Assembly (NCBI GenBank): GCA_947561715.1
Contig: OX387202.1
Location: 5,035,001 to 5,099,000 of the forward strand
Reading direction: 5' to 3'
DNA length: 64,000 bases
Source: Ascidia mentula
Taxonomy: Eukaryota; Chordata; Ascidiacea; Phlebobranchia; Ascidiidae
The notes beneath the pieces were generated by a model, which did not search any database, was not told the DNA's origin, and was given only the letters and a program-made list of their open reading frames with translations. This document shows positions 541 through 63,960 of the stretch, piece after piece. A program made the position numbers and the translations under genes. Each line of letters starts with the position of its first letter. Positions within the stretch are counted from its first letter, which is position 1.

Positions 541-1197
541 GAAACAAACACGACGCAGGTGGGTGGTACATTGGAATTCTTGGACGTTCTCCATGTTATT
601 CCACGAGATTCTTGGTTGGATTTTGAAACCAAAGACTTCACTAAGCCGACAAGTGTTGGGCGTACATTCATCAATGGAATGTCACATTATCCCCAGCACA
701 TCTTTAAGGCAATTGTGTACGGGGAGGCTGTAAGGATGCGCCGCTTAAATGAGGAGCAAGAAGATTACATTGAAAGCCTCAATCGCCTCCAGAAAAAGTG
801 TGCTGCCTCAGAATTTCCAATGCGCAAAACGAAAAAACTCATTGCTATTGCGCGTAATTGGAAGGAGAGGTTTGGGCCTAAAAACAACCACGAGGAAAAT
901 ACCGGCGCCAACAAGTGTATATACTGGGGTACATTCTTCCCAAGCTATATGTCGCTTTCTGCCAAAGACAAAGAACTGGAACCGAATGCCAGGGTAACTT
1001 TTAAAAAACCACGGACATTGCAAAGTTGGCTAACTTCCTTTAAAGCAACTGCCACAGTCACCCACACGGGGCCGGGCTATTCAAAGCCTTGTGGTAGCTG
1101 CGGCCTGTGTGGACACTGCAAGGGTCTCAAAAGCATGGTGGATGAGGTTCATCATGTCGGCACTCCGTCTGGTTTGGTGAAGCTCCACGACCAATGA
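541..1197 (+). pseudogene. PLE-B reverse transcriptase C-terminus plus Cys-rich knuckle
   Basis: The open frame reads into the element from flanking DNA; element-type protein begins near 541. Seen in order: an RT tail with a LEFLDV stretch followed by the FTKPT and IVYGEA blocks that match the end of Penelope RTs (YRKPTHT and RAVV regions in other members), a charged linker, and a Cys-rich motif CGSCGLCGHC at about residues 205-214. A Cys-rich knuckle between RT and endonuclease is known in several PLE clades. The palm-domain catalytic motifs are missing because of 5' truncation. One in-frame stop separates this part from the endonuclease, so the copy is dead. Confidence 0.75.
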
Positions 1198-1539
1198 AGC
1201 TGCACCAATTATGGCATATATGTGGCAATATGCAGAATATGTCATGACAAATATGTGGGACAAACTAAAAACAAGTTTTCCACCAGATGGAACCAACATC
1301 GACAAATGTGGAGAACTTTTAACACCAGGGCCACGGGTGACAAAAGTGCATTACTCCGCCATTACGAAGTGCACCACCATCAACAATTCAGCGAAAGACC
1401 AAAGCTAGCTGAATGCTACTCTGTGGTGTTTTTACAACAACCGCCCATGGACCAATTGGACATATACGAGGACAAATGGCACAAACACTTAAACGCAAAA
1501 ATCAACATTCAAAAATTAATTTTACCGTCAGTTACGTGA
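1198..1539 (+). pseudogene. PLE-B GIY-YIG endonuclease domain
   Basis: Same frame as the upstream RT tail, just past the stop. The GIY signature is at 1213-1221 (NYGIYVAICRIC) and the YIG counterpart, YVGQT, at 1252-1266. The expected Arg follows in FSTRWNQH, then an ALLRHY block, the LAECYSVVFLQ strand and a C-terminal INIQKLILP motif. This order is the standard one for the endonuclease that nicks the target in canonical Penelope elements. The same C-terminal block recurs in the PLE-C copy near 25047-25250, showing that the two families are related. The domain looks complete, but it is cut off from its RT. Confidence 0.8.
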
Positions 1540-1773: not shown

Positions 1774-1816
1774 TAGAACTGAAGATGCTTTAATAAAAAG
1801 CGAAACATGTTTTCTA
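1774..1816 (+). ncRNA. hammerhead-ribozyme-like motif of PLE-B
   Basis: Read 5' to 3': helix I strand UAGAA (1774-1778), core CUGAAGA (1779-1785), one extra U, helix II GCUUU/AAAGC (1787-1791 with 1797-1801), GAA (1802-1804), self-complementary ACAUGU as helix III (1805-1810), a U at the cleavage position (1811), then UUCUA (1812-1816), which pairs perfectly with the first strand. Minimal type-I hammerheads with very short helix III are known in the terminal repeats of Penelope-like elements and can act as dimers. The extra base after A9 departs from the textbook core, so activity is unproven. Confidence 0.6.
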
Positions 1817-9684: not shown

Positions 9685-10764
9685 AAACCGACGTTTCGTC
9701 TACCATCTGGCGAGACTTCCTCAGGGTTATGTCAACAATACTCCACCAAGCGTACAAACACTAAAAACGCAAGAAAAACACAAGAAAAAAAGGGAATGGA
9801 TAACACTGGCGCCGCTTGTATCGTCACGTGACCAAGTGTGTAGCTGGGCGTATCACTTACAACAAGTTGTTGTAAACCGCTGGAAAGTACACACATTGCT
9901 CCTTGTCATTCACGCAATGGTTGTTTTTTGGATGTTGAGTGTTTCCAGGAATATACGTTTTGTGTGGTCCTTGGCAATAGCGGATGATGAGTGTATGGTG
10001 TCCTTTGACGTGGTGTCTCTTTTCACCAATTTGCCAATATCGGTAGCTGTTACTAATGTCATGGCACGCTTAGAGGTTGACAGTAACCTTGAGCAGTGCA
10101 CGTTGCTATCCTGTGAGGATATCGCAGAAGGGATGAAATTATGTTTAAACGCCACCTATTTTTCCTTCGCGGTGTGTTTTACCAACAGGTTTTTGGTACG
10201 GCGATGGGTTTTCTTATCTCTGTGGTAGTGGCGAATGTAGTTATGGAAACAATCGATCATAAGGCACTCGCCACTTTTGCGCATTCTCCCCGTTACTGGA
10301 AGCGTTATGTCGACGACACCTTCGTCATCGTTGATGAAGCACAGCTCCAGTTGTTCCTTACACACATTAACCGTGTGGAAGATTCTATGAAATTTACTTT
10401 AGAAAAGGAAAGGGGTGGTACACTACCATTTTTGGATACAGAGGTTATCCGTGATGAGAATGGGTTGATTAGCACTCGTGTGTATCACAAGCCGACGCAC
10501 ACCAATCGGTACTTATCGTTTAAGTCGGCACATCCGATATAGCATAAGACAGCGGTAGTGCGGTCGCTGATGGATAGAGACGAGGATCTGGCTTCCAGAG
10601 AAGAAGACCGTGAAAAAGAGGTGAAGTTCATCAAGAATGCACTGCGGAAGAATCTGTATCTGTCATGGATGTTTAGAAGAAAGCCCGCGGTCAAGCCACA
10701 AGAAACAGCGCCAACTACCGGTACGATATTTTTGCCATACGTTCTTGTTTTAACAACCTTATAA
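9620..10764 (+). mobile_element. Penelope-like element fragment PLE-A, copy 1
   Basis: RT fragment of a Penelope-like element in three overlapping or adjacent frames: 9836-10228, 10141-10542 and 10558-10764. Visible RT blocks are ECMVSFDVVSLFTNLP (motif A, near 9985), GTAMGFLISVVVANVVME (motif B), YVDDTF (motif C, 10306-10320), and TLPFLDTEV followed by KPTHTNRYLSFKSAHP. It is truncated at both ends: no N-terminal region beyond the PLVSSRDQV block and no GIY-YIG domain. Upstream, at 9685-9729, lies an antisense hammerhead-like motif, as expected for an inverted terminal repeat at the 5' end. Interrupted and inactive. All six copies share these ends, so they descend from one insertion. Confidence 0.8.
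9685..9729 (-). ncRNA. hammerhead-ribozyme-like motif of PLE-A (copy 1, antisense)
   Basis: On the minus strand: AACC before CUGAGGA, one extra A, helix II GUCU/AGAC extended by GCC/GGU-type pairs across a bulged C, GAA, self-complementary ACGU, C at the cleavage position, then GGUUU. Helix I has four pairs here; in the copy at 63854-63898 it has five. It lies antisense to the RT, as expected for an inverted 5' terminal repeat. Confidence 0.55.
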
Positions 10765-17744: not shown

Positions 17745-18889
17745 GACTGCCAGGCATAGTAATTAATGGCAATTGCTCTTCTGGCACTTAAGTTTCTAAA
17801 GTGTTTATTTGAAACCGACTTTTCGTCTACCATCCGGCGAGACTTCCTCAGGGTTATGTCAACAATAATCCACCAAGCGCACAAACACTAAAAACGCAAG
17901 AAAAACACAAGAAAAAAAGGGAATGGATAACACTAGCGCCGCTTGTATCGTCACGTGACCAAGTGTGTAGCTGGGCGTATCACTTACAACAAGTTGTTGT
18001 AAACCGCTGGAAAGTACACACATTGCTCCTTGTCATTCACGCAATGGTTGTTTTTTGGATGTTGAGTTTTTCCAGGAATAGACGTTTTGTGTGGTACTTG
18101 GCAATAGCGGATGATGAGTGTATGGTGTCCTTTGGCGTGGTGTCTCTTTTCACCAATGTGCCAATATCGGTAGCTGTTACTACTTTCATGGCACGCTTAG
18201 AGGTTGACAGTAACCTTGAGCAGTGCACGTTGCTATCCTGTGAGGATATCGCAGAAGGGAAGAAATTATGTTTAAACGCCACCTAATTTTCCTTTCGCGG
18301 TGTGTTTTACCAACAGGTGTTTGGTACGGCGATGGGTTCTCTTATCTCTGTGGTAGTGGCGAATGTAGTAATGGAAACAATCGAGGATAAGGCACTCACA
18401 ACTTTTGCGCATTCTTCCCTTTACTGGAAGCGTTATGTCGACTACACCTTCGCCATCGTTGATGCACAGCTTCAGTTGTTCCTTACCCACATTAACCGTG
18501 TGGAAGATTCCATCAAATTTACTTCAGAAAGAGAAAGGGGTGGTACACTACCATTTTTGGATACAGAGGTTATCCGTGATGAGAATGGGTTGATTAGCAC
18601 TCGTGTGTATCGCAAGCCGACGCACACCAATCGGTACCAGTCGTTTAAGTCGGCACATCCGATATAGCACAAAACAGCGGTAGTGCGGTCGCTGATGGAT
18701 AGAGACGAGGCTCTGGTTTCCAGAGAAGAAGACCGTGAAAAAGAGGTGAAGTTCATCAAGAATGCACTGCGGAAGAATCTGTATCTGTCATGGATGTTTA
18801 GAAGAAAGCCCGCGGTCAATCCACAAGAAACAGCGCCAACTACCGGTACAAACGTTTCGCCATATGTTCTTGTTTTAACAACCTTATAA
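17745..18889 (+). mobile_element. Penelope-like element fragment PLE-A, copy 2
   Basis: Same 5'- and 3'-truncated RT fragment as copy 1, with RT pieces at 17963-18286, 18302-18667 and 18683-18889. It is interrupted, and its catalytic YVDD box is altered. An antisense hammerhead-like motif lies at 17812-17855, with helix III changed from ACGU so that it is no longer self-complementary. A dead passenger of the array. Confidence 0.8.
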
Positions 18890-24617: not shown

Positions 24618-24680
24618 TACATTGGAAAGACTAAAAAAGCAGTAGCTTTTTATACAGGATCAGCCTGGCTTATAAATCAG

Positions 24681-24719
24681 GAATATATATTTCGCCCCAT
24701 GGGCATCTTCAGTTCCTTC
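24681..24719 (-). ncRNA. hammerhead-ribozyme-like motif, PLE-C 3' repeat
   Basis: Sense with respect to the element. AGGAA, CUGAAGA, extra U, helix II GCCC-AUG-GGGC, GAA, self-complementary AUAUAU, A at the cleavage position, then UUCCU, pairing perfectly with AGGAA. It is identical to the mirror motif at 25263-25301. Confidence 0.65.
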
Positions 24720-25046
24720 AGTAAACACATTAAATGATATAAAAACGTCTGAAAAACAGCAACATTAGAGAAAGGGCTAGTGATAAAAAACAACAACAAC
24801 TTCGACCTCTTGCAATGCTACTATGCGAAGGCAAAACACTGAGTTACCCGCCTTGCATTAGAAGGTAAGAGATTTGCGTACACTGTGGAGAAACCGCATC
24901 AGACGCGGGTGGAGATAAGGAACGCGGCGATAAGTCGAACGGCGTAAAACCACCTTAAAAACACACACGAAAAACACGAAAAAACATGTAGCCATTAAAA
25001 CGATTAAAAGCAATGAAAACGAGAGAACGATTTTTAAGAAAACACA

Positions 25047-25250
25047 TCAACGCACCCTAGGCAATATCATTTTTTGTATGTTAATGGTGGCACCTGTAAG
25101 GTGAAGCCACTTTGCCTCGCACATGTCTAAATCCCGAAAATGTGGTTGTTCCACAAAAATTACATAAAAACAATCCGCCATGTTCGGTTGATTTGCAAAA
25201 GTGGACTTGTGCTGGGTTGCGTAGTGCTTTAGCAGAGCTGGGTTGCGTAT
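25047..25250 (-). pseudogene. PLE-C GIY-YIG endonuclease C-terminal fragment
   Basis: Part of an open frame (25047-25409) whose first half only translates the inverted terminal repeat. The element part reads ALLKHYATQHKS, then MADCFYVIFVEQP, and closes with INIQKMILP, matching block by block the end of the PLE-B endonuclease at 1340-1539. The GIY-YIG catalytic core itself is missing because of 5' truncation, so this copy cannot encode an enzyme. Confidence 0.75.
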
Positions 25251-25262
25251 GTGTTTACTGAA

Positions 25263-25301
25263 GGAACTGAAGATGCCCATGGGGCGAAATATATATTCCT
25301 G
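25263..25301 (+). ncRNA. hammerhead-ribozyme-like motif, PLE-C inverted 5' repeat
   Basis: AGGAA 25263-25267, CUGAAGA 25268-25274, extra U, GCCC 25276-25279, loop AUG, GGGC 25283-25286, GAA 25287-25289, AUAUAU 25290-25295, A 25296, UUCCU 25297-25301. Antisense to the element. Same architecture as the PLE-A and PLE-B motifs, with different helix sequences. Confidence 0.65.
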
Positions 25302-25440
25302 ATTTATAAGCCAGGCTGATCCTGTATAAAAAGCTACTGCTTTTTTAGTATTATAAAATAAGTTGCAGTGATCGCTAGGCCTGCATCTGCAGTTTTGGGT
25401 AGATCCCAATATTTCAATTTTTGAAGTACATTGGAAAGAC

Positions 25441-27019: not shown

Positions 27020-28110
27020 TACTGCCAGGCATAGTAATTAATGGCAATTGCTCTTCTGGCACTCAAGTTTCTAAAGTGTTTATTTGTAACCGACGTTTCG
27101 TCTACCATCCGGCGAGACTTCCTCAGGGTTATGTCAACAATAATCCACCAAGCGCACAAACACTAAAAACGCAAGAAAAACACAAGAAAAAAAGCGAATG
27201 GATAACACTAGCGACGCTTGTATCGTCACGTGACCAAGTGTGTAGCTGGGCGTATCACTTACAACAAGTTGTTGTAAACCGCTGGAAAGTACACACATTG
27301 CTTCTTGTCATTCACGCAATGGTTGTTTTTTGGATATTGAGTGTTTCCAGGAATAGACGTTTTGTGTGGTACTTGGCAATAGCGGATGATGAGTGTATGG
27401 TCTCCTTTGGCGTGGTGTCTCTTTTCACCAATGTGCCAATATCAGCAGCTGTTACTACTTTCATGGCACGCTTAGAGGTTGACAGTAACCTTGAGCAGTG
27501 CACGTTGCTATCCTGTGAGGATATCGCAGAAGGGATGAAATTATGTTTAAACGCCACAGATTTTTCCTTTCGCGGTGTGTTTTACCAACAGGTGTTTGGT
27601 ACGGCGATGGGTTCTCTTATCTCTGTGGTAGTGACAAATGTAGTAATGGAAACAATCGAGGATAAAGCACTCGCCACTTTTGCGCATTCTTCCCTTTACT
27701 GGAAGCGTTATGTCGACGACACCTTCGCCATCGTTGATGATGCACAGCTCCAGTTGTTCCTTACCCACATTAACCGTGTGGAAGATTCCATCAAATTTAC
27801 TTTAGAAAGGGAAAGGGGTGGTACACTACCATTTTTGGATACAAAGGTTATCCGTGATGAGAATGGGTTGATTAGCACTCGTGTGTATCGCAAGCCGACG
27901 CACACCAATCGGTACCTATCGTTTAAGTCGGCACATCCGATATAGTACAAGACAGCGGTAGTGCGGTCGCTGATGGATAGAGACGAGGCTCTGGTTTCCA
28001 GAGAAGAAGACCGTGAAAAAGAGGTGAAGTTCATCAAGAATGCACTGCGGAAGAATATGTATCTGTCATGGATGTTTAGAAGAAAGCCCGCGGTCAATCC
28101 ACAAGAAACA
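27020..28110 (+). mobile_element. Penelope-like element fragment PLE-A, copy 3
   Basis: The best-kept RT fragment. A frame open from 26716 to 27945 (409 codons, TTG at its left end) covers RT motifs A, B and C (YVDD at 27709-27720) up to KSAHP, but it is a chance fusion: its first half translates block L, the half finger and the inverted terminal repeat. A short RT tail follows to about 28110, where the C-terminal end seen in other copies is deleted. The antisense hammerhead-like motif at 27087-27131 has UAACC/GGUUA as helix I, five clean pairs. Inactive. Confidence 0.8.
27087..27131 (-). ncRNA. hammerhead-ribozyme-like motif of PLE-A (copy 3, antisense)
   Basis: Same layout as copy 1. Helix I is UAACC with GGUUA, where copy 6 has AAACC with GGUUU: both bases of the outer pair differ and pairing is kept. 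Core CUGAGGA, helix III ACGU and cleavage-site C are intact. Confidence 0.55.
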
Positions 28111-37319: not shown

Positions 37320-38466
37320 TACTGCCAGGCATAGTAACTAATGAGGAATTGCTCTTCTGGTACTTAAGTTTCTAAAGTGTTTATTTGAAACCGACGTTTC
37401 GTCTTCCATCCGGCGAGACTTCCTCAGGGTTTTGTCAACATTAATCCACCAAGCGCACAAACACTAAAAACGCAAGAAAAACACAAGAAAAAAGGGAATG
37501 GATAACACTGGCGCCGCTTGTATCGTCACGTGACCAAGTGTGTAGCTGGGCGTATCACTTACAACAAGTTGTTGTAAACCGCTGGAAAGTACACACATTG
37601 CTCCTTATCATTCACGCAATGGTTGTTTTTTGGATGTTGAGTGTTTCCAGGAATATACGTTTTGTGTGGTCCTTGGCAATAGCGGATGATGAGTGTATGG
37701 TGTCCTTTGACGTGGTGTCTCTTTTCACCAATGTGCCAATATGGGTAGCTGTTACTAATGTCGTGGCACGCTTAGAGGTTGACAGTAATCTTGAGCAGTG
37801 CATGTTGCTATCCTGTGAGGATATCGCAGAAGGGAAGAAATTATGTTTAAACGCCCCTATTTTTCCTTTCGCGGTGTGTTTTACCAACAGGTGTTTGGTA
37901 CGGCGATGGGATCTCTTATCTCTGTGGTAGTGGCGAATGTAGTAATGGAAACAATCGAGGATAAGGCACTCGCCACTTTTGCGCATCCTCCCTGTTACTG
38001 GAAGCGTTATGTCGACGACACCTTCGCCATCGTTGATGAAGCACAGCTCTAGTTGATCCTTAACCACATTAACCGTGTGGAAGATTCCATCAAATTTACT
38101 TCAAAAAGGGAAAGGGGTGGTACACTACCATTTTTAGATACGGAGGTTATCCGTGATGAGAATGGTTTGATCAGCACTCGTGTGTATCGCAAGCCGACGC
38201 ACACCAATCGGTACCTATCGTTTAAGTCGGCACATCCGATATAGCACAAAACAGCGGTAGTGCGGTCGCTGATGGATAGAGACGAGGCTCAGGTTTGCAG
38301 AGAAGAAGACCGTGAAAAAGAGGTGAAGTTCATCAAGAATGCACTGCGGAAGAATCTGCATCTGTTATGGGTGTTTAGAAGAAAGCCCGCGGTCGAGCCA
38401 CAAGAAACAGCGCCAACTACCGGTACGATCGTTTTGCCACACGTTCTTCTTGTAAAAACCTTATAA
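37320..38466 (+). mobile_element. Penelope-like element fragment PLE-A, copy 4
   Basis: RT pieces at 37538-37930, 37843-38052, 38053-38244 and 38260-38466, with YVDDTF present and the same outer truncations as the other copies. Several interruptions. The antisense hammerhead-like motif at 37388-37432 has a complete five-pair helix I (AAACC/GGUUU). Confidence 0.8.
37388..37432 (-). ncRNA. hammerhead-ribozyme-like motif of PLE-A (copy 4, antisense)
   Basis: AAACC, CUGAGGA, extra A, helix II starting GUCU with AGAC, GAA, ACGU, C, GGUUU. All elements match copy 6, making these two the best-preserved PLE-A motifs. Confidence 0.6.
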
Positions 38467-51560: not shown

Positions 51561-53219
51561 AATACAACATTTGTTAAAAATATTTTAATTATCTCCATCC
51601 ATTAAAATTCCACCACCGAATGCATACAGGTAATAAACCATATTATTGTAAGATTTGTTATGAAACTCTCACTGAAATCAAACAATCAAAGAATACACGA
51701 GCAAATTAACTCATATGGGAGAAAAAAACTTGAACTGTAGCGCATGTGATAAAGCTTTCTGCAGTTTAGTCTCTTACCCAAATCACATTGTAACACAAGG
51801 AGTGGAACTGTTTAAGATGTTCTGTGGGACTGCAAAATATTTGTATATTACAAAAGAGTATATTTTTCTGCATTTCGGGAGAGGTATAGGTATGTATAAG
51901 TTTTGACGGTGTACGAATTTCTAGTCGTTTGCAAAAGAATTTATACTTTTAAAAGGTTGCCAGTCCATTCGTTGGCTGCGTTTGCTCAGCAATTATATAT
52001 CACAGAGTTCAATACAGTTCCGAGACAGCGCTACAAATTTCACAATATAATTTTGTCACTAGTTGGCGATGGATGTCTGGAGCTGGTTTAAAACTCTCCT
52101 ATCATGTTTGGAAGGCCAAAGTGAACACATTTGTGCAGAAATTTCATGTAAATTTTTGACAATTTTTCCTTAAAGTGCATGTGAAATGGAAAATTTTATT
52201 AAAAAATAATTAAACTATGAAATGGTCATTGCTTTCAACAACTTTTGGCGGAAAAAGGTAGCTTTATACGGCAACAGGTTTCTGAGATACAGCTGAACAA
52301 AGTTGCATTTTTGCAGTTTCTATCGTAATCGTGCGAAATCTTCAGTCGTAAGGGAGCTGCCAGCGAGGCTTATACAGGTGCACAACTAGTGAACAAGTGC
52401 AACATACGGATTTTGATTGTTTATTTAAAATGCAAACAAAGGGCGGTTGTTTTGACCTATTAGGTCTTGTTTAGTTTCTTTGTAATGAAAACTGTTGCTG
52501 GGACAAGGTGCTTTTGTGGTCAAACCATATGTGATGTCATCTTTTTTAAGTCTTAAAATCAAGGCATTGATGATTGCTAATATCAGACATAAACTTTTCA
52601 AAAACGTCAATTAGTACTCATTGAAGCATTTTCGTTTTGTCCACTCCCGGCAGAAAATAAGTAATTTAATATTGGAGCTGGCAAACATCGCCGTGAAAAA
52701 CAGAACAAACGTACTGAAACTATATGGTGCTTAATTAGTTGTAGTTTAAGTACAATATTGGTATAAAATCCGCTACAATCAACTACTAGTGTACAAATTT
52801 TAGAGATTACAAATATTATGAAATCATCCACTGAGGTTAAAGTAATGACATGACACATCAGAGTAACATATTTTTGTATCATGACACAGCTTGACCTTTG
52901 TGGTACCCTTATTTGAAGGTCGCCCTATGTTTGAAACTATTCGATATCAACAATATAAGACGATTTTCCTATGCAAACAATGCATTTTTTACATTGACGA
53001 AGAACCGAAATACTTTGAAAATATGTTTATTGTGGATGTAACTTTAGTTTTACGCAAAATTGCCATGGCCAAATACACCACCAAGGAAACATCCGGCCTA
53101 GAACGCAATGCATGCTTTATCCGTTCTGGTGATCAAACAAGGCTCATTCGGATGGAGACACAATGGAGAGAAACCATACAACTGCGCAATTTGTTCAAAA
53201 ATACTTCTCTTTTTACTGC
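51561..53219. other. tail blocks T and L (unit B')
   Basis: Twin of 16112-17744 up to about 52655, then a different version of block L. The half finger near 53090-53190 is frame-disturbed. No gene is seen. Confidence 0.5.
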
Positions 53220-54240
53220 CAGGCATAGTAATTAATGGGAATTGGTCTTCTGGCACTTAAGTTTCTAAAGTGTTTATTTGAAACCGACTTTTCGTCTACC
53301 ATTCGTCGAGATTTCTTCAGGGTTATGTCAACAATAATCCACCAAGCCCACAAACACCAAAAACGCAAGAACTACGTTAAAAAAACACAAGAAAAAGGGG
53401 GAATGGAAAACAGTGGCGCCGCTTGTATCGTCACGTGACCAAGTGTGTAGCTGGGCGTATCACTTACAACAAGTTGTTATAAACCCCTGGAAAGTACACA
53501 CATTGCTCCTTGTCATTCACGCAATGGTTGTTCTTTGGATGTTGAGTGTTTCCAGGAATAGACGTTTTGTGTGGTCCTTGGCAATAGCGGATGATGAGTG
53601 TATGGTGTCCTTTGACGTGGTGTCTCTTTTCACCAATGTGCCAATATCGGTAGCTGTTACTAATGTCATGGCACGCTTAGAGGTTGACAATAACCTTGAG
53701 CAGTGCATGTTGCTATCCTGTGAGGATATCGCAGAAGGGAAGAAATTATGTTTAAATGCCACCTATTTTTCCTTTCACGGTGTGTTTTACCAACAGGTGT
53801 TTGGTACGGCAATGGGTTCTCTTATCTCTGTGGTAGTGGCGAATGTAGTAATGGAAACAATCGAGGATAAGGCACAGTTGTTCCTTACCCACATTAACCG
53901 TGTGGAAGATTCCATGAAATTTACTTTAGAAAAGGAAAGGGGTGGTACACTACCATTTATGGATGCAGAGGTTATCCGTGATAAGAATAGGTTGATTAGC
54001 ACTCGAGTGTATCGCAAGCCGACGCACACCAATCAGTACCAGTCGTTTAAGTCGGCACATCCGATATAGCATAAGACAGCGGTAGTGCGGTCGCTGATAG
54101 AAGGAGACGAGGCTCTGGTTTCCAGATAAGAAGACCATGAAAAAGAGGTGAAGTTCATCAAGAATGCACTGCGGAAGAATCTGCATCTGTCATGGATGTT
54201 TGGAAGAAAGCCCGCGGTCTAGCCACAAGAAACAGCGCCA
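53220..54240 (+). mobile_element. Penelope-like element fragment PLE-A, copy 5
   Basis: A 218-codon RT frame (53413-54069) with motif A (MVSFDVVSLFTNVP) and motif B (GTAMGSLISVVVANVVME). An in-frame deletion joins EDKA directly to QLFLTHINR, removing the YVDD catalytic box. The C-terminal part lies at about 54070-54240 and is interrupted. The antisense hammerhead-like motif near 53281-53324 is degenerate in its core and in helix II. Inactive. Confidence 0.8.
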
Positions 54241-62884: not shown

Positions 62885-63960
62885 TTATAAGGTTGTTAAA
62901 ACAAGAACGTATGGCAAAAATATCGTACCGGTAGCTGGCGCTGTTTCTTGTGGCTTCACCGCGGGCTTTCTTCTAAACATCCATGACATATACAGATTCT
63001 TCCACAGTGCATTCTTGATGAACTTCACCTCTTTTTTACGGTCTTCTTCTCTGGAAACCAGAGCCTCGTCTCCATCCATCAGCGACCGCACTACCGCTGT
63101 CTTATGCTGTATCGGATGTGCCGACTTAAACGATAAGTACCGATTGGTGTGCGTCGGCTTGCGATACACACGAGTGCTAATCAACCCATTCTCATCACGG
63201 ATAACCTCCGTATCCATACGTGGAAGTGTACCACCCCTTTCCTTTTCTAAAGTAAATTTTATGGAATTTTCCACATGGTTAATGTGGGTAAGAAACAACT
63301 GGAGCTGTGCTTCATCAACGATGGCGAAGGTGTCGTCGACATAACGCTTCCAGTAACGTGGAGAATGCGCAAAAGTGGCGAGTGCCTTATCCTCGATTGT
63401 TTCATCACTACATTCGCTACCACAGAGATAAGAGAACCCATCGCCGTACCAAAAACCTGTTGGTAAAACACTGCTCAAGGTTACTGTCAACCTCTAAGCG
63501 TGCCATGACATTAGTAACAGCTACCGATATTGGCACATTGGTGAAAAGAGACACCACTTCAAAGGACACCATACACTCATCATCTGCTATTGCCAAGGAC
63601 CACGCAAAATGTCTACTCTTGGGAACACTCAACATCCAAAAAACAACCATTGCGTGAATGACAAGGAGCAATGTGTGTACTTTCCAGCGGTTTACAACAA
63701 CTTGTTGTAAGTGATACGCCCAGCTACACACTTGGTCACGTGACGATACAAGCGGCGCCAGTGTTATCCATTCCCTTTTTTTCTTGTGTTTTTCTTTTTT
63801 TTTTTTTCTTGTGCGTTTTTGCTGTTTGTGCGCTTGGTGGATTATTGTTGACAAAACCCTGAGGAAGTCTCACCGAATTGTAGACGAAACGTCGGTTTCA
63901 AATAAACACTTTAGTAACTTATGTGCCAGAAGAGCAATTTTCATTAATTACTATGCCTGG
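62885..63960 (-). mobile_element. Penelope-like element fragment PLE-A, copy 6
   Basis: The inverted copy: RT pieces at 62885-63490 and 63417-63854, with YVDDTF and an uninterrupted run from there through KSAHPIQHKTAVV to the RT tail. It lacks one disabling change near the end of the RT that all five plus-strand copies share, but has its own internal deletion between motifs A and B. Ends and flanks match the other copies. Inactive. Confidence 0.8.
63854..63898 (+). ncRNA. hammerhead-ribozyme-like motif of PLE-A (copy 6)
   Basis: AAACC 63854-63858, CUGAGGA 63859-63865, extra A, GUCU 63867-63870 pairing with AGAC 63882-63885, GAA 63886-63888, ACGU 63889-63892, C 63893, GGUUU 63894-63898. Helix I pairs over all five bases, and the C at the cleavage position is the preferred base. 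Antisense to the RT, as in all PLE-A copies. Confidence 0.6.

What the first reader, a model, noticed from the sequence alone, without database searches (positions are those of the whole stretch)
1774..1816. Three distinct PLE families share one hammerhead-like fold
Seen: at 1774-1816 (PLE-B), 25263-25301 and 24681-24719 (PLE-C), and 63854-63898 and 37388-37432 (PLE-A), the same order occurs: a 5-nt helix I strand, CUGA(A/G)GA, one extra base, a helix II hairpin, GAA, a short self-complementary helix III (ACAUGU, AUAUAU, ACGU), one base, and the exact complement of the first strand. Helix I sequences differ between families (UAGAA, AGGAA, AAACC), yet each pairs perfectly, so the fold rather than the sequence is conserved. 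Known: hammerheads occur in PLE terminal repeats, often with a helix III that needs a dimer. The one extra base after A9 in all three is unusual; an extra base there has been described in a viroid hammerhead.
Basis: partly seen in the sequence, partly recalled or inferred. Interest (0 to 1): 0.75.

Follow-up and report, generated by a model that had tools for sequence, protein, structure and literature searches.

The report
Penelope hammerheads with an extra base
Jumping genes of the Penelope type in this genome carry a small, probably self-cutting RNA motif whose shape is kept while its letters change, and nearly every copy found has one additional base in the catalytic centre, which gives chemists a clear thing to test in an otherwise known kind of ribozyme.

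Summary
A strict descriptor finds seven hammerhead motifs in the window, each with one extra base after A9; shuffled windows give 0.12. B and C are Penelope-like elements with RT and GIY-YIG parts; A is a more distant, weakly matched Penelope RT remnant. The motif is general here: 33 of 40 stretches downstream of Penelope ORFs carry it, 0 of 40 on the opposite strand. Between families helices change by compensation (8 of 12 pairs). Helix III is a loopless palindrome, so it should form only between two hammerheads. The extra base is close to obligatory: 1278 pattern matches with it, 1 without; 746 against 0 for the AUAUAU type. It is mostly U with short and A with long helix II, with exceptions. 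Best reading: minimal dimeric type I hammerheads of Penelope pseudo-LTRs, a known kind, in a lineage that has fixed an extra residue 10. In a viroid hammerhead U there is reported to speed cleavage 3-4-fold (a review). Cleavage was not tested, folding support is partial, and the two key papers were not readable here.

The parts
1774..1816 (+). Hammerhead B: helix I 1774-1778/1812-1816, core CUGAAGA 1779-1785, extra U 1786, helix II 1787-1791/1797-1801, GAA 1802-1804, helix III ACAUGU 1805-1810, U17 1811, predicted cut 1811|1812
550..1533 (+). Penelope ORF remnant of B (RT thumb and GIY-YIG region, one in-frame TGA), sense with the motif, 42% identical to the C protein over 331 columns; Pfam names no family in its first ORF
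25262..25300 (+). Hammerhead C in the inverted pseudo-LTR copy; extra U 25274, helix III AUAUAU 25289-25294, predicted cut 25295|25296
24679..24717 (-). Hammerhead C, sense with the ORF remnant at 25050-25265
25050..25265 (-). C-terminal end of the C Penelope ORF (92% identical to the L090 ORF over 72 aa)
24627..24730 (.). left arm of the 104-nt inverted pseudo-LTR pair (99% identical)
25249..25352 (.). right arm of the 104-nt inverted pseudo-LTR pair
63854..63898 (+). Hammerhead A: extra A 63866, helix II region 63867-63885, helix III ACGU 63889-63892, C17 63893
37388..37432 (-). Hammerhead A
27087..27131 (-). Hammerhead A (UAACC/GGUUA helix I)
9685..9729 (-). Hammerhead A with 4-bp helix I
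17812..17856 (-). Hammerhead A, decayed (helix III AAGU)
53219..53394 (-). stretch holding a decayed A copy (helix III AAGU)
27574..28011 (+). Penelope RT remnant (KRYVDD) beside A, 26% identity, E 1.3e-5; strand opposite to the motif at 27087
10171..10608 (+). Penelope RT remnant (KRYVDD), E 1.4e-4, opposite strand to the motif at 9685
37873..38310 (+). Penelope RT remnant (KRYVDD), E 4.2e-4, opposite strand to the motif at 37388
18299..18733 (+). Penelope RT remnant (KRYVDY), E 0.005, opposite strand to the motif at 17812

Best explanation
These are minimal type I hammerhead ribozymes of the pseudo-LTRs (pLTRs) of endonuclease-bearing Penelope-like retroelements. Shown by sequence: core, covarying helices, place 3' of the ORF and in both pLTRs of a head-to-tail copy, palindromic loopless helix III, and one extra base (mostly U10, or A10) between A9 and helix II. 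Inferred: transcripts across tandem units hold two sense hammerheads about 3.4-3.5 kb apart; their helix III palindromes pair with each other, the double hammerhead cuts after H17, and unit-length RNA is released. Also inferred: the extra base is kept by selection as part of the core, U10 mostly with short helix II and A10 mostly with a long bulged helix II. Copies of B and C end about 50-60 or about 130 nt beyond the cut site, so the RNA used for insertion was uncut there, or had been closed again into a circle.
For: Strict descriptor 7 hits against 0.117 in shuffles. 33 of 40 ORF-downstream stretches carry the motif, all 33 with one extra U although 0 to 3 extra bases were allowed; 0 of 40 on the opposite strand, 0 of 40 reversed. 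Covariation in 9 family sequences: 96.3% of 108 cells paired, 8 of 12 pairs changed on both sides, score 0.495 against 0.174 in shuffles and at most 0.111 in slid versions. Helix III types AUAUAU, AUCGAU, AUUAAU, ACAUGU, ACGU; the scan did not require a palindrome (it ranked by it), those did. Head-to-tail copy L090: two identical 357-nt pLTRs, same direction, hammerheads 3387 nt apart around a 954-aa open frame. Extra base: 1278 matches with one, 1 without; 746 against 0, of the 746 731 U, 9 C, 4 A, 2 G. Family A: extra A in 25 of 26. Viroid precedent: extra A10; U10 faster, C and G harmful (PMC3705267 passage). Known kind: PMC6155905 section 8, passages of PMC7761336 and PMC6466107.
Against: No cleavage data. 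Minimum-energy folding gives helices I and II for C only (there U10 is drawn paired with G12); B folds with a shifted helix I and A into another fold. Co-folding of two B copies does pair the two ACAUGU palindromes but runs on through GAA and the helix I strand, which is not an active form; co-folds of A and C do not use helix III. In 14 of 30 fetched C loci (some overlap) hammerheads stand as inverted pairs on opposite strands, which does not place two sense motifs on one RNA. Insertions end beyond the cut site, and in the one Penelope element tested hammerhead mutants did not change insertion in vitro and the ribozyme needed protein (PMC11167929), so a role of cleavage in mobility is not shown. 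Within family A no covariation is seen. Helix I of at least 4 pairs was a search condition, which inflates its pairing rate. U/A is not absolute: C occurs in 9 of 746 and in 4 of 100 listed places, and 4 A cases have a short helix II. Full-length C ORFs score below Pfam's cut-offs for both RVT_1 and GIY-YIG.
Confidence: 0.8

Rival explanations
1. The extra base is inherited from one Penelope ancestor and neutral; it has no effect on the ribozyme.
For: The families are related (most non-C matches 36-52% identical to the C protein), so shared descent is likely for most of them; 15 of 746 copies have another base there, and a few short-stem types carry C (3 of 46 distinct strings).
Against: N7, inside the core, shows all four bases across the listed types while the extra base is U in 33 of 36 distinct short-stem strings, and helices have been replaced by compensatory change. 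U or A rather than C or G agrees with the viroid mutational data.
Confidence: 0.3
2. The motif is kept as a signal of retrotransposition (template recognition near the start of reverse transcription), and the hammerhead core is retained for shape, not for cleavage.
For: Most B and C copies end at two set distances beyond the cut site, 49-61 nt (21 of 38 and 23 of 45 BLAST rows) and 128-141 nt (16 of 38 and 20 of 45), so the motif sits at a set distance from the start of copying; in Anolis PAc hammerhead mutants insert normally.
Against: Catalytic residues and H17 are kept across families whose helices differ, though both were search conditions; a shape signal would not require them. PAc does cleave when protein is present.
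Confidence: 0.15
3. Chance matches to a loose descriptor in AT-rich repeats.
For: A, B and C copies in the window are few independent insertions.
Against: Shuffles 0.117; 1278 matches against 0 for the reversed pattern; 33 of 40 against 0 of 40; 2 matches in the viral contig collection, neither with helix I by eye.
Confidence: 0.01

Closest known systems
Minimal type I hammerheads of Penelope-like elements (Cervera and De la Pena 2014; Lunse, Weinberg and Breaker 2017)
   Same: Place in pLTRs, type I order, weak or absent helix III, tandem copies, possible cleavage as dimers (as told in PMC7761336, PMC6155905 and PMC6466107; the two papers themselves were not held)
   Different: Here an extra base after A9 is close to obligatory; whether those papers show it could not be checked
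PAc, Poseidon of Anolis carolinensis (PMC11167929; section 3 part 1 and passages seen)
   Same: RT plus GIY-YIG ORF, tandem pLTRs, hammerhead, tail structure, internal start of reverse transcription, both target strands extended
   Different: In PAc the hammerhead overlaps the start of the ORF; the sequence of its core was not seen here
Chrysanthemum chlorotic mottle viroid (+) hammerhead
   Same: One extra base (A10) between A9 and helix II; U at that place raises the trans-cleaving rate 3-4-fold (PMC3705267 passage)
   Different: A viroid ribozyme with loop-loop interactions (same passage); here a whole retroelement lineage with an open helix III
Penelope families of Adineta vaga (PMC3846280, passages)
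   Same: Inverted and direct pLTRs, optional tail, palindromic junctions
   Different: Hammerheads are not mentioned in that paper (0 occurrences)
Rfam RF00163 Hammerhead_1
   Same: Core and order
   Different: No match in the window or in the genome (whose controls also rang nowhere)

Membership tests
Hammerhead ribozyme, type I | CUGANGA ... GAA core with A15.1-U16.1 and H17, helix I open-ended | tested here: met
   7 window hits; 33 of 40 ORF-linked stretches
Hammerhead ribozyme, type I | at most one or two bases between CUGANGA and its stems (as stated in PMC10085705, passage) | tested here: met
   one extra base: 1278 matches against 1 with none; it departs from the consensus, which has none
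Hammerhead ribozyme, type I | three helices supported by covariation | tested here: met
   4, 2 and 2 pairs with changes on both sides in helices I, II, III, 9 sequences, family A left out
Hammerhead ribozyme, type I | self-cleavage after H17 | not testable with these tools
   needs an assay
Minimal dimeric hammerheads of Penelope-like elements | helix III too short to close in one molecule but self-complementary | tested here: met
   palindromes of 4 or 6 nt without loop in the types tabulated; required by the scans
Minimal dimeric hammerheads of Penelope-like elements | location in pLTRs of elements with RT and GIY-YIG | tested here: met
   L090 pLTR-ORF-pLTR; GIY-YIG above cut-off in two C pieces (L046, L043) and a third ORF in L065, RVT_1 below cut-off; full-length ORFs below both cut-offs; B by 42% identity to C, A only by weak RT similarity
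Minimal dimeric hammerheads of Penelope-like elements | cleavage as dimer | not testable with these tools
   co-folding inconclusive; assay needed
Metazoan retrozymes | short (150-300 bp) non-coding tandem repeats with type I hammerheads (PMC7761336) | tested here: not met
   the ORF-linked motifs lie beside Penelope ORFs, in L090 3387 nt apart; the other genome copies were not examined for this

The most novel reading that the evidence does not exclude
An entire Penelope lineage has fixed a non-consensus hammerhead core with an added residue 10 and tuned it to the architecture of helix II: U10 with short stems, A10 with a long stem made of 4 bp, a one-base bulge, about 3 bp and a loop. The added base would compensate for the missing helix III and missing loop contacts, and is the same change that speeds up a viroid hammerhead.
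Probability: 0.35. Interest if true: 0.6.

Novelty: new variant of a known kind. Interest (0 to 1): 0.45.

Why it matters
Why Penelope elements keep hammerheads is an open question (PMC7761336 calls their role a mystery). A genome with more than a thousand pattern matches in which one core position departs from the textbook consensus, nearly always to U or A, gives a direct mutational test of what that position does, and a simple way to find such ribozymes that present Rfam models missed in this window.

Tried and rejected
Rfam: nothing at gathering score or E<=10 over the window; small stretches gave weak unrelated families plus, once, HH9 at 15.3 bits. RF00163 in the genome gave nothing, but its controls rang nowhere, so this is no evidence of absence. 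Pfam named nothing in the B ORF P0001 or in three A-side ORFs; PDB gave nothing for P0001 and only three weak unrelated chains for the 954-aa frame. Viral contigs gave 2 pattern matches, by eye without helix I, taken as chance. The single match without extra base (C73:1496319) does not, by eye, continue as a hammerhead. Very long open frames reported for some RT matches are at least partly due to N stretches and were left there. A script for per-position tallies gave nothing usable; a fold script crashed (redone). Alignments A1 and A2 misplaced family A's helix III, so A was left out of the covariation count. A covariance model was considered and not built. Of 112 Penelope matches 40 were fetched, chosen as reaching the C-terminus and mostly not of the C family; 5 of 40 had no motif (L091, L100, L114, L120, L126) and 2 had one defect (L103 in the core, L109 with G17). 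The U/A split rests on the first 100 of 1278 places, all on contig C1.

Full report
What is there. A descriptor with core CUGANGA, 0-2 extra bases, helix II of at least 2 bp, GAA, a self-complementary helix III of A...U type, H17 and at least 4 pairs in helix I finds seven places in the window: 1774 (+), 25262 (+), 63854 (+), 37388 (-), 27087 (-), 24679 (-), 9685 (-). All seven have exactly one extra base. Sixty dinucleotide shuffles gave 0.117 hits per window.

Surroundings. The window lies in a genome of 196 Mb, not named, and is largely an array of C2H2 zinc-finger genes in repeated units of roughly 7-10 kb. B follows a Penelope ORF remnant at 550-1533 (RT thumb, then GIY-YIG region, one in-frame TGA), 42% identical to the C protein; Pfam names no family in it. 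C is an insert of about 0.7-0.8 kb with 104-nt inverted repeats at 24627-24730 and 25249-25352, each holding a hammerhead, around the last 72 residues of a Penelope ORF. A motifs stand beside RT remnants found by tblastn at 27574, 10171 and 37873 (KRYVDD, 26-28% identity, E 1.3e-5 to 4.2e-4), 18299 (KRYVDY, E 0.005) and 53614 (E 0.16), with composition correction and masking off. In all five the motif is on the strand opposite to the RT. I read this as an inverted 5' pLTR on a truncated element, as in the C copy.

Elements elsewhere in the genome. Pieces of family C ORFs (L046, L043) score above Pfam's GIY-YIG cut-off, and one has a YIDD motif; RVT_1 is below cut-off. The full open frames of L089 (771 aa) and L090 (954 aa) score below both cut-offs. 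L090 has two identical 357-nt pLTRs in the same direction around the 954-aa frame, with hammerheads 3387 nt apart. L089 is a 5.28-kb palindrome, 99% identical to its own reverse complement, with an open frame in each arm and a hammerhead near each end pointing outward. A related family stands in direct arrays with a spacing of 3493 bp. These shapes agree with Penelope elements in Adineta (PMC3846280, passages) and with PAc of Anolis, which extends both strands of its target (PMC11167929, section 3 part 1).

Generality. A Penelope protein fragment found 112 matches in the genome. I fetched 600 nt downstream of 40 of them. A strict scan found the motif in 33 of 40, on the opposite strand in 0 of 40, and in 0 of 40 reversed sequences; the extra base was U in all 33, with 0 to 3 extra bases allowed. 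Two more have a single defect and five have none.

Covariation. Nine sequences of types B, C, D1, D2, E, E2, F, G and H were aligned. 96.3% of 108 cells pair; 8 of 12 pairs change on both sides; the covariation score is 0.495 against 0.174 in shuffles, reached by 0 of 500, and at most 0.111 in slid structures. Helix III changes too, and stays a palindrome: AUAUAU, AUCGAU, AUUAAU, ACAUGU. Helix I pairing of 4 or more was a search condition, and a palindromic helix III was one but not, where the types were first read. So the pairing rates are partly by construction; the kinds of change are not. Within family A (26 aligned copies) no covariation is seen, as expected for decaying copies.

The extra base. 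Exact patterns over the whole genome: CTGANGA-N-GC...GCGAAATATAT 746 matches, reversed pattern 0; the same without the extra base 0. CTGANGA-N-GCC...GGCGAAA 1278 matches, reversed 0; without the extra base 1, with 1 for the reversed pattern, and that one place does not by eye continue as a hammerhead. These patterns cover only stems that begin GC or GCC; two extra bases were not searched genome-wide. Of the 746, 731 have U, 9 C, 4 A and 2 G. Among the first 100 listed places (46 distinct strings, all on contig C1), 33 distinct strings with U and 3 with C have a helix II region of 10-17 nt and all 10 with A have 19-20 nt. The 4 A cases have short stems and go against a strict rule. The strings are related, so the Fisher value (5e-10) is not a fair probability. 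Most strings of the A type show 4 proximal pairs, a one-base bulge on the 5' side and 2-4 distal pairs, as in window family A (GUCU C GCC GGAU GGC AGAC). In the chrysanthemum viroid hammerhead an extra A10 sits at this place; A to U raises the trans-cleaving rate 3-4-fold and C or G is harmful (PMC3705267, passage). U and A are what these elements mostly carry.

How it most likely works. Transcripts over head-to-tail units would hold two sense hammerheads. Helix III cannot close in one motif but can between two, so a double hammerhead would form and cut after H17 to release unit-length RNA. This is inferred. Energy folding supports helices I and II for C only. Co-folding pairs the two helix III palindromes for B, but in a longer duplex that swallows GAA and helix I; for A and C it does not use helix III. 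Copies of B and C mostly end at two set distances beyond the cut: 49-61 nt (21 of 38 BLAST rows for B, 23 of 45 for C) and 128-141 nt (16 of 38, 20 of 45); 2 C rows end at 18 nt and one B row, the window itself, runs on; rows overlap between loci. The template of insertion therefore ran past the cut site: it was uncut there or had been circularised. In PAc hammerhead mutants insert normally and the ribozyme needs protein (PMC11167929, passages), so cleavage may serve another step.

Place among known things. Penelope elements are known to carry minimal type I hammerheads that may act as dimers (PMC6155905 section 8; PMC7761336 passages; PMC6466107 passages). Insertions of one or two bases between CUGAnGA and its stems are allowed for in known alignments (PMC10085705, passage). 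I did not see it stated that residue 10 is a fixed part of Penelope hammerheads, in the listings of seven searches and the passages or sections I opened of fifteen papers. Cervera 2014 and Lunse 2017 were not held, so this is not a claim of priority.

Noticed in passing
L089 (G000:C70:2586700-2592200): A C-family element is a 5.28-kb near-perfect palindrome with two 771-aa open frames head to head and hammerheads pointing outward near both ends.
   Followed up: partly
G000:C52:9243754-9259872: Penelope ORF matches repeat at 3493-bp spacing, three on one strand followed by three on the other, a head-to-head pair of direct arrays.
   Followed up: no
loci L009-L068: Most copies of B and C end at two set distances 3' of the hammerhead cut (about 50-60 and about 130 nt), as if reverse transcription starts at two set sites; the longer form resembles the 'tail' of other Penelope elements.
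   Followed up: partly
window 4470-60700: Array of C2H2 zinc-finger genes (84-nt repeats) in duplicated units of roughly 7-10 kb, which seems to have multiplied one ancestral insertion of the A element.
   Followed up: partly
listing, e.g. G000:C1:7197848 and G000:C1:1082728: Further hammerhead types with extra A and a helix II of 19-20 nt, mostly with a one-base bulge, like window family A; their elements were not examined.
   Followed up: no
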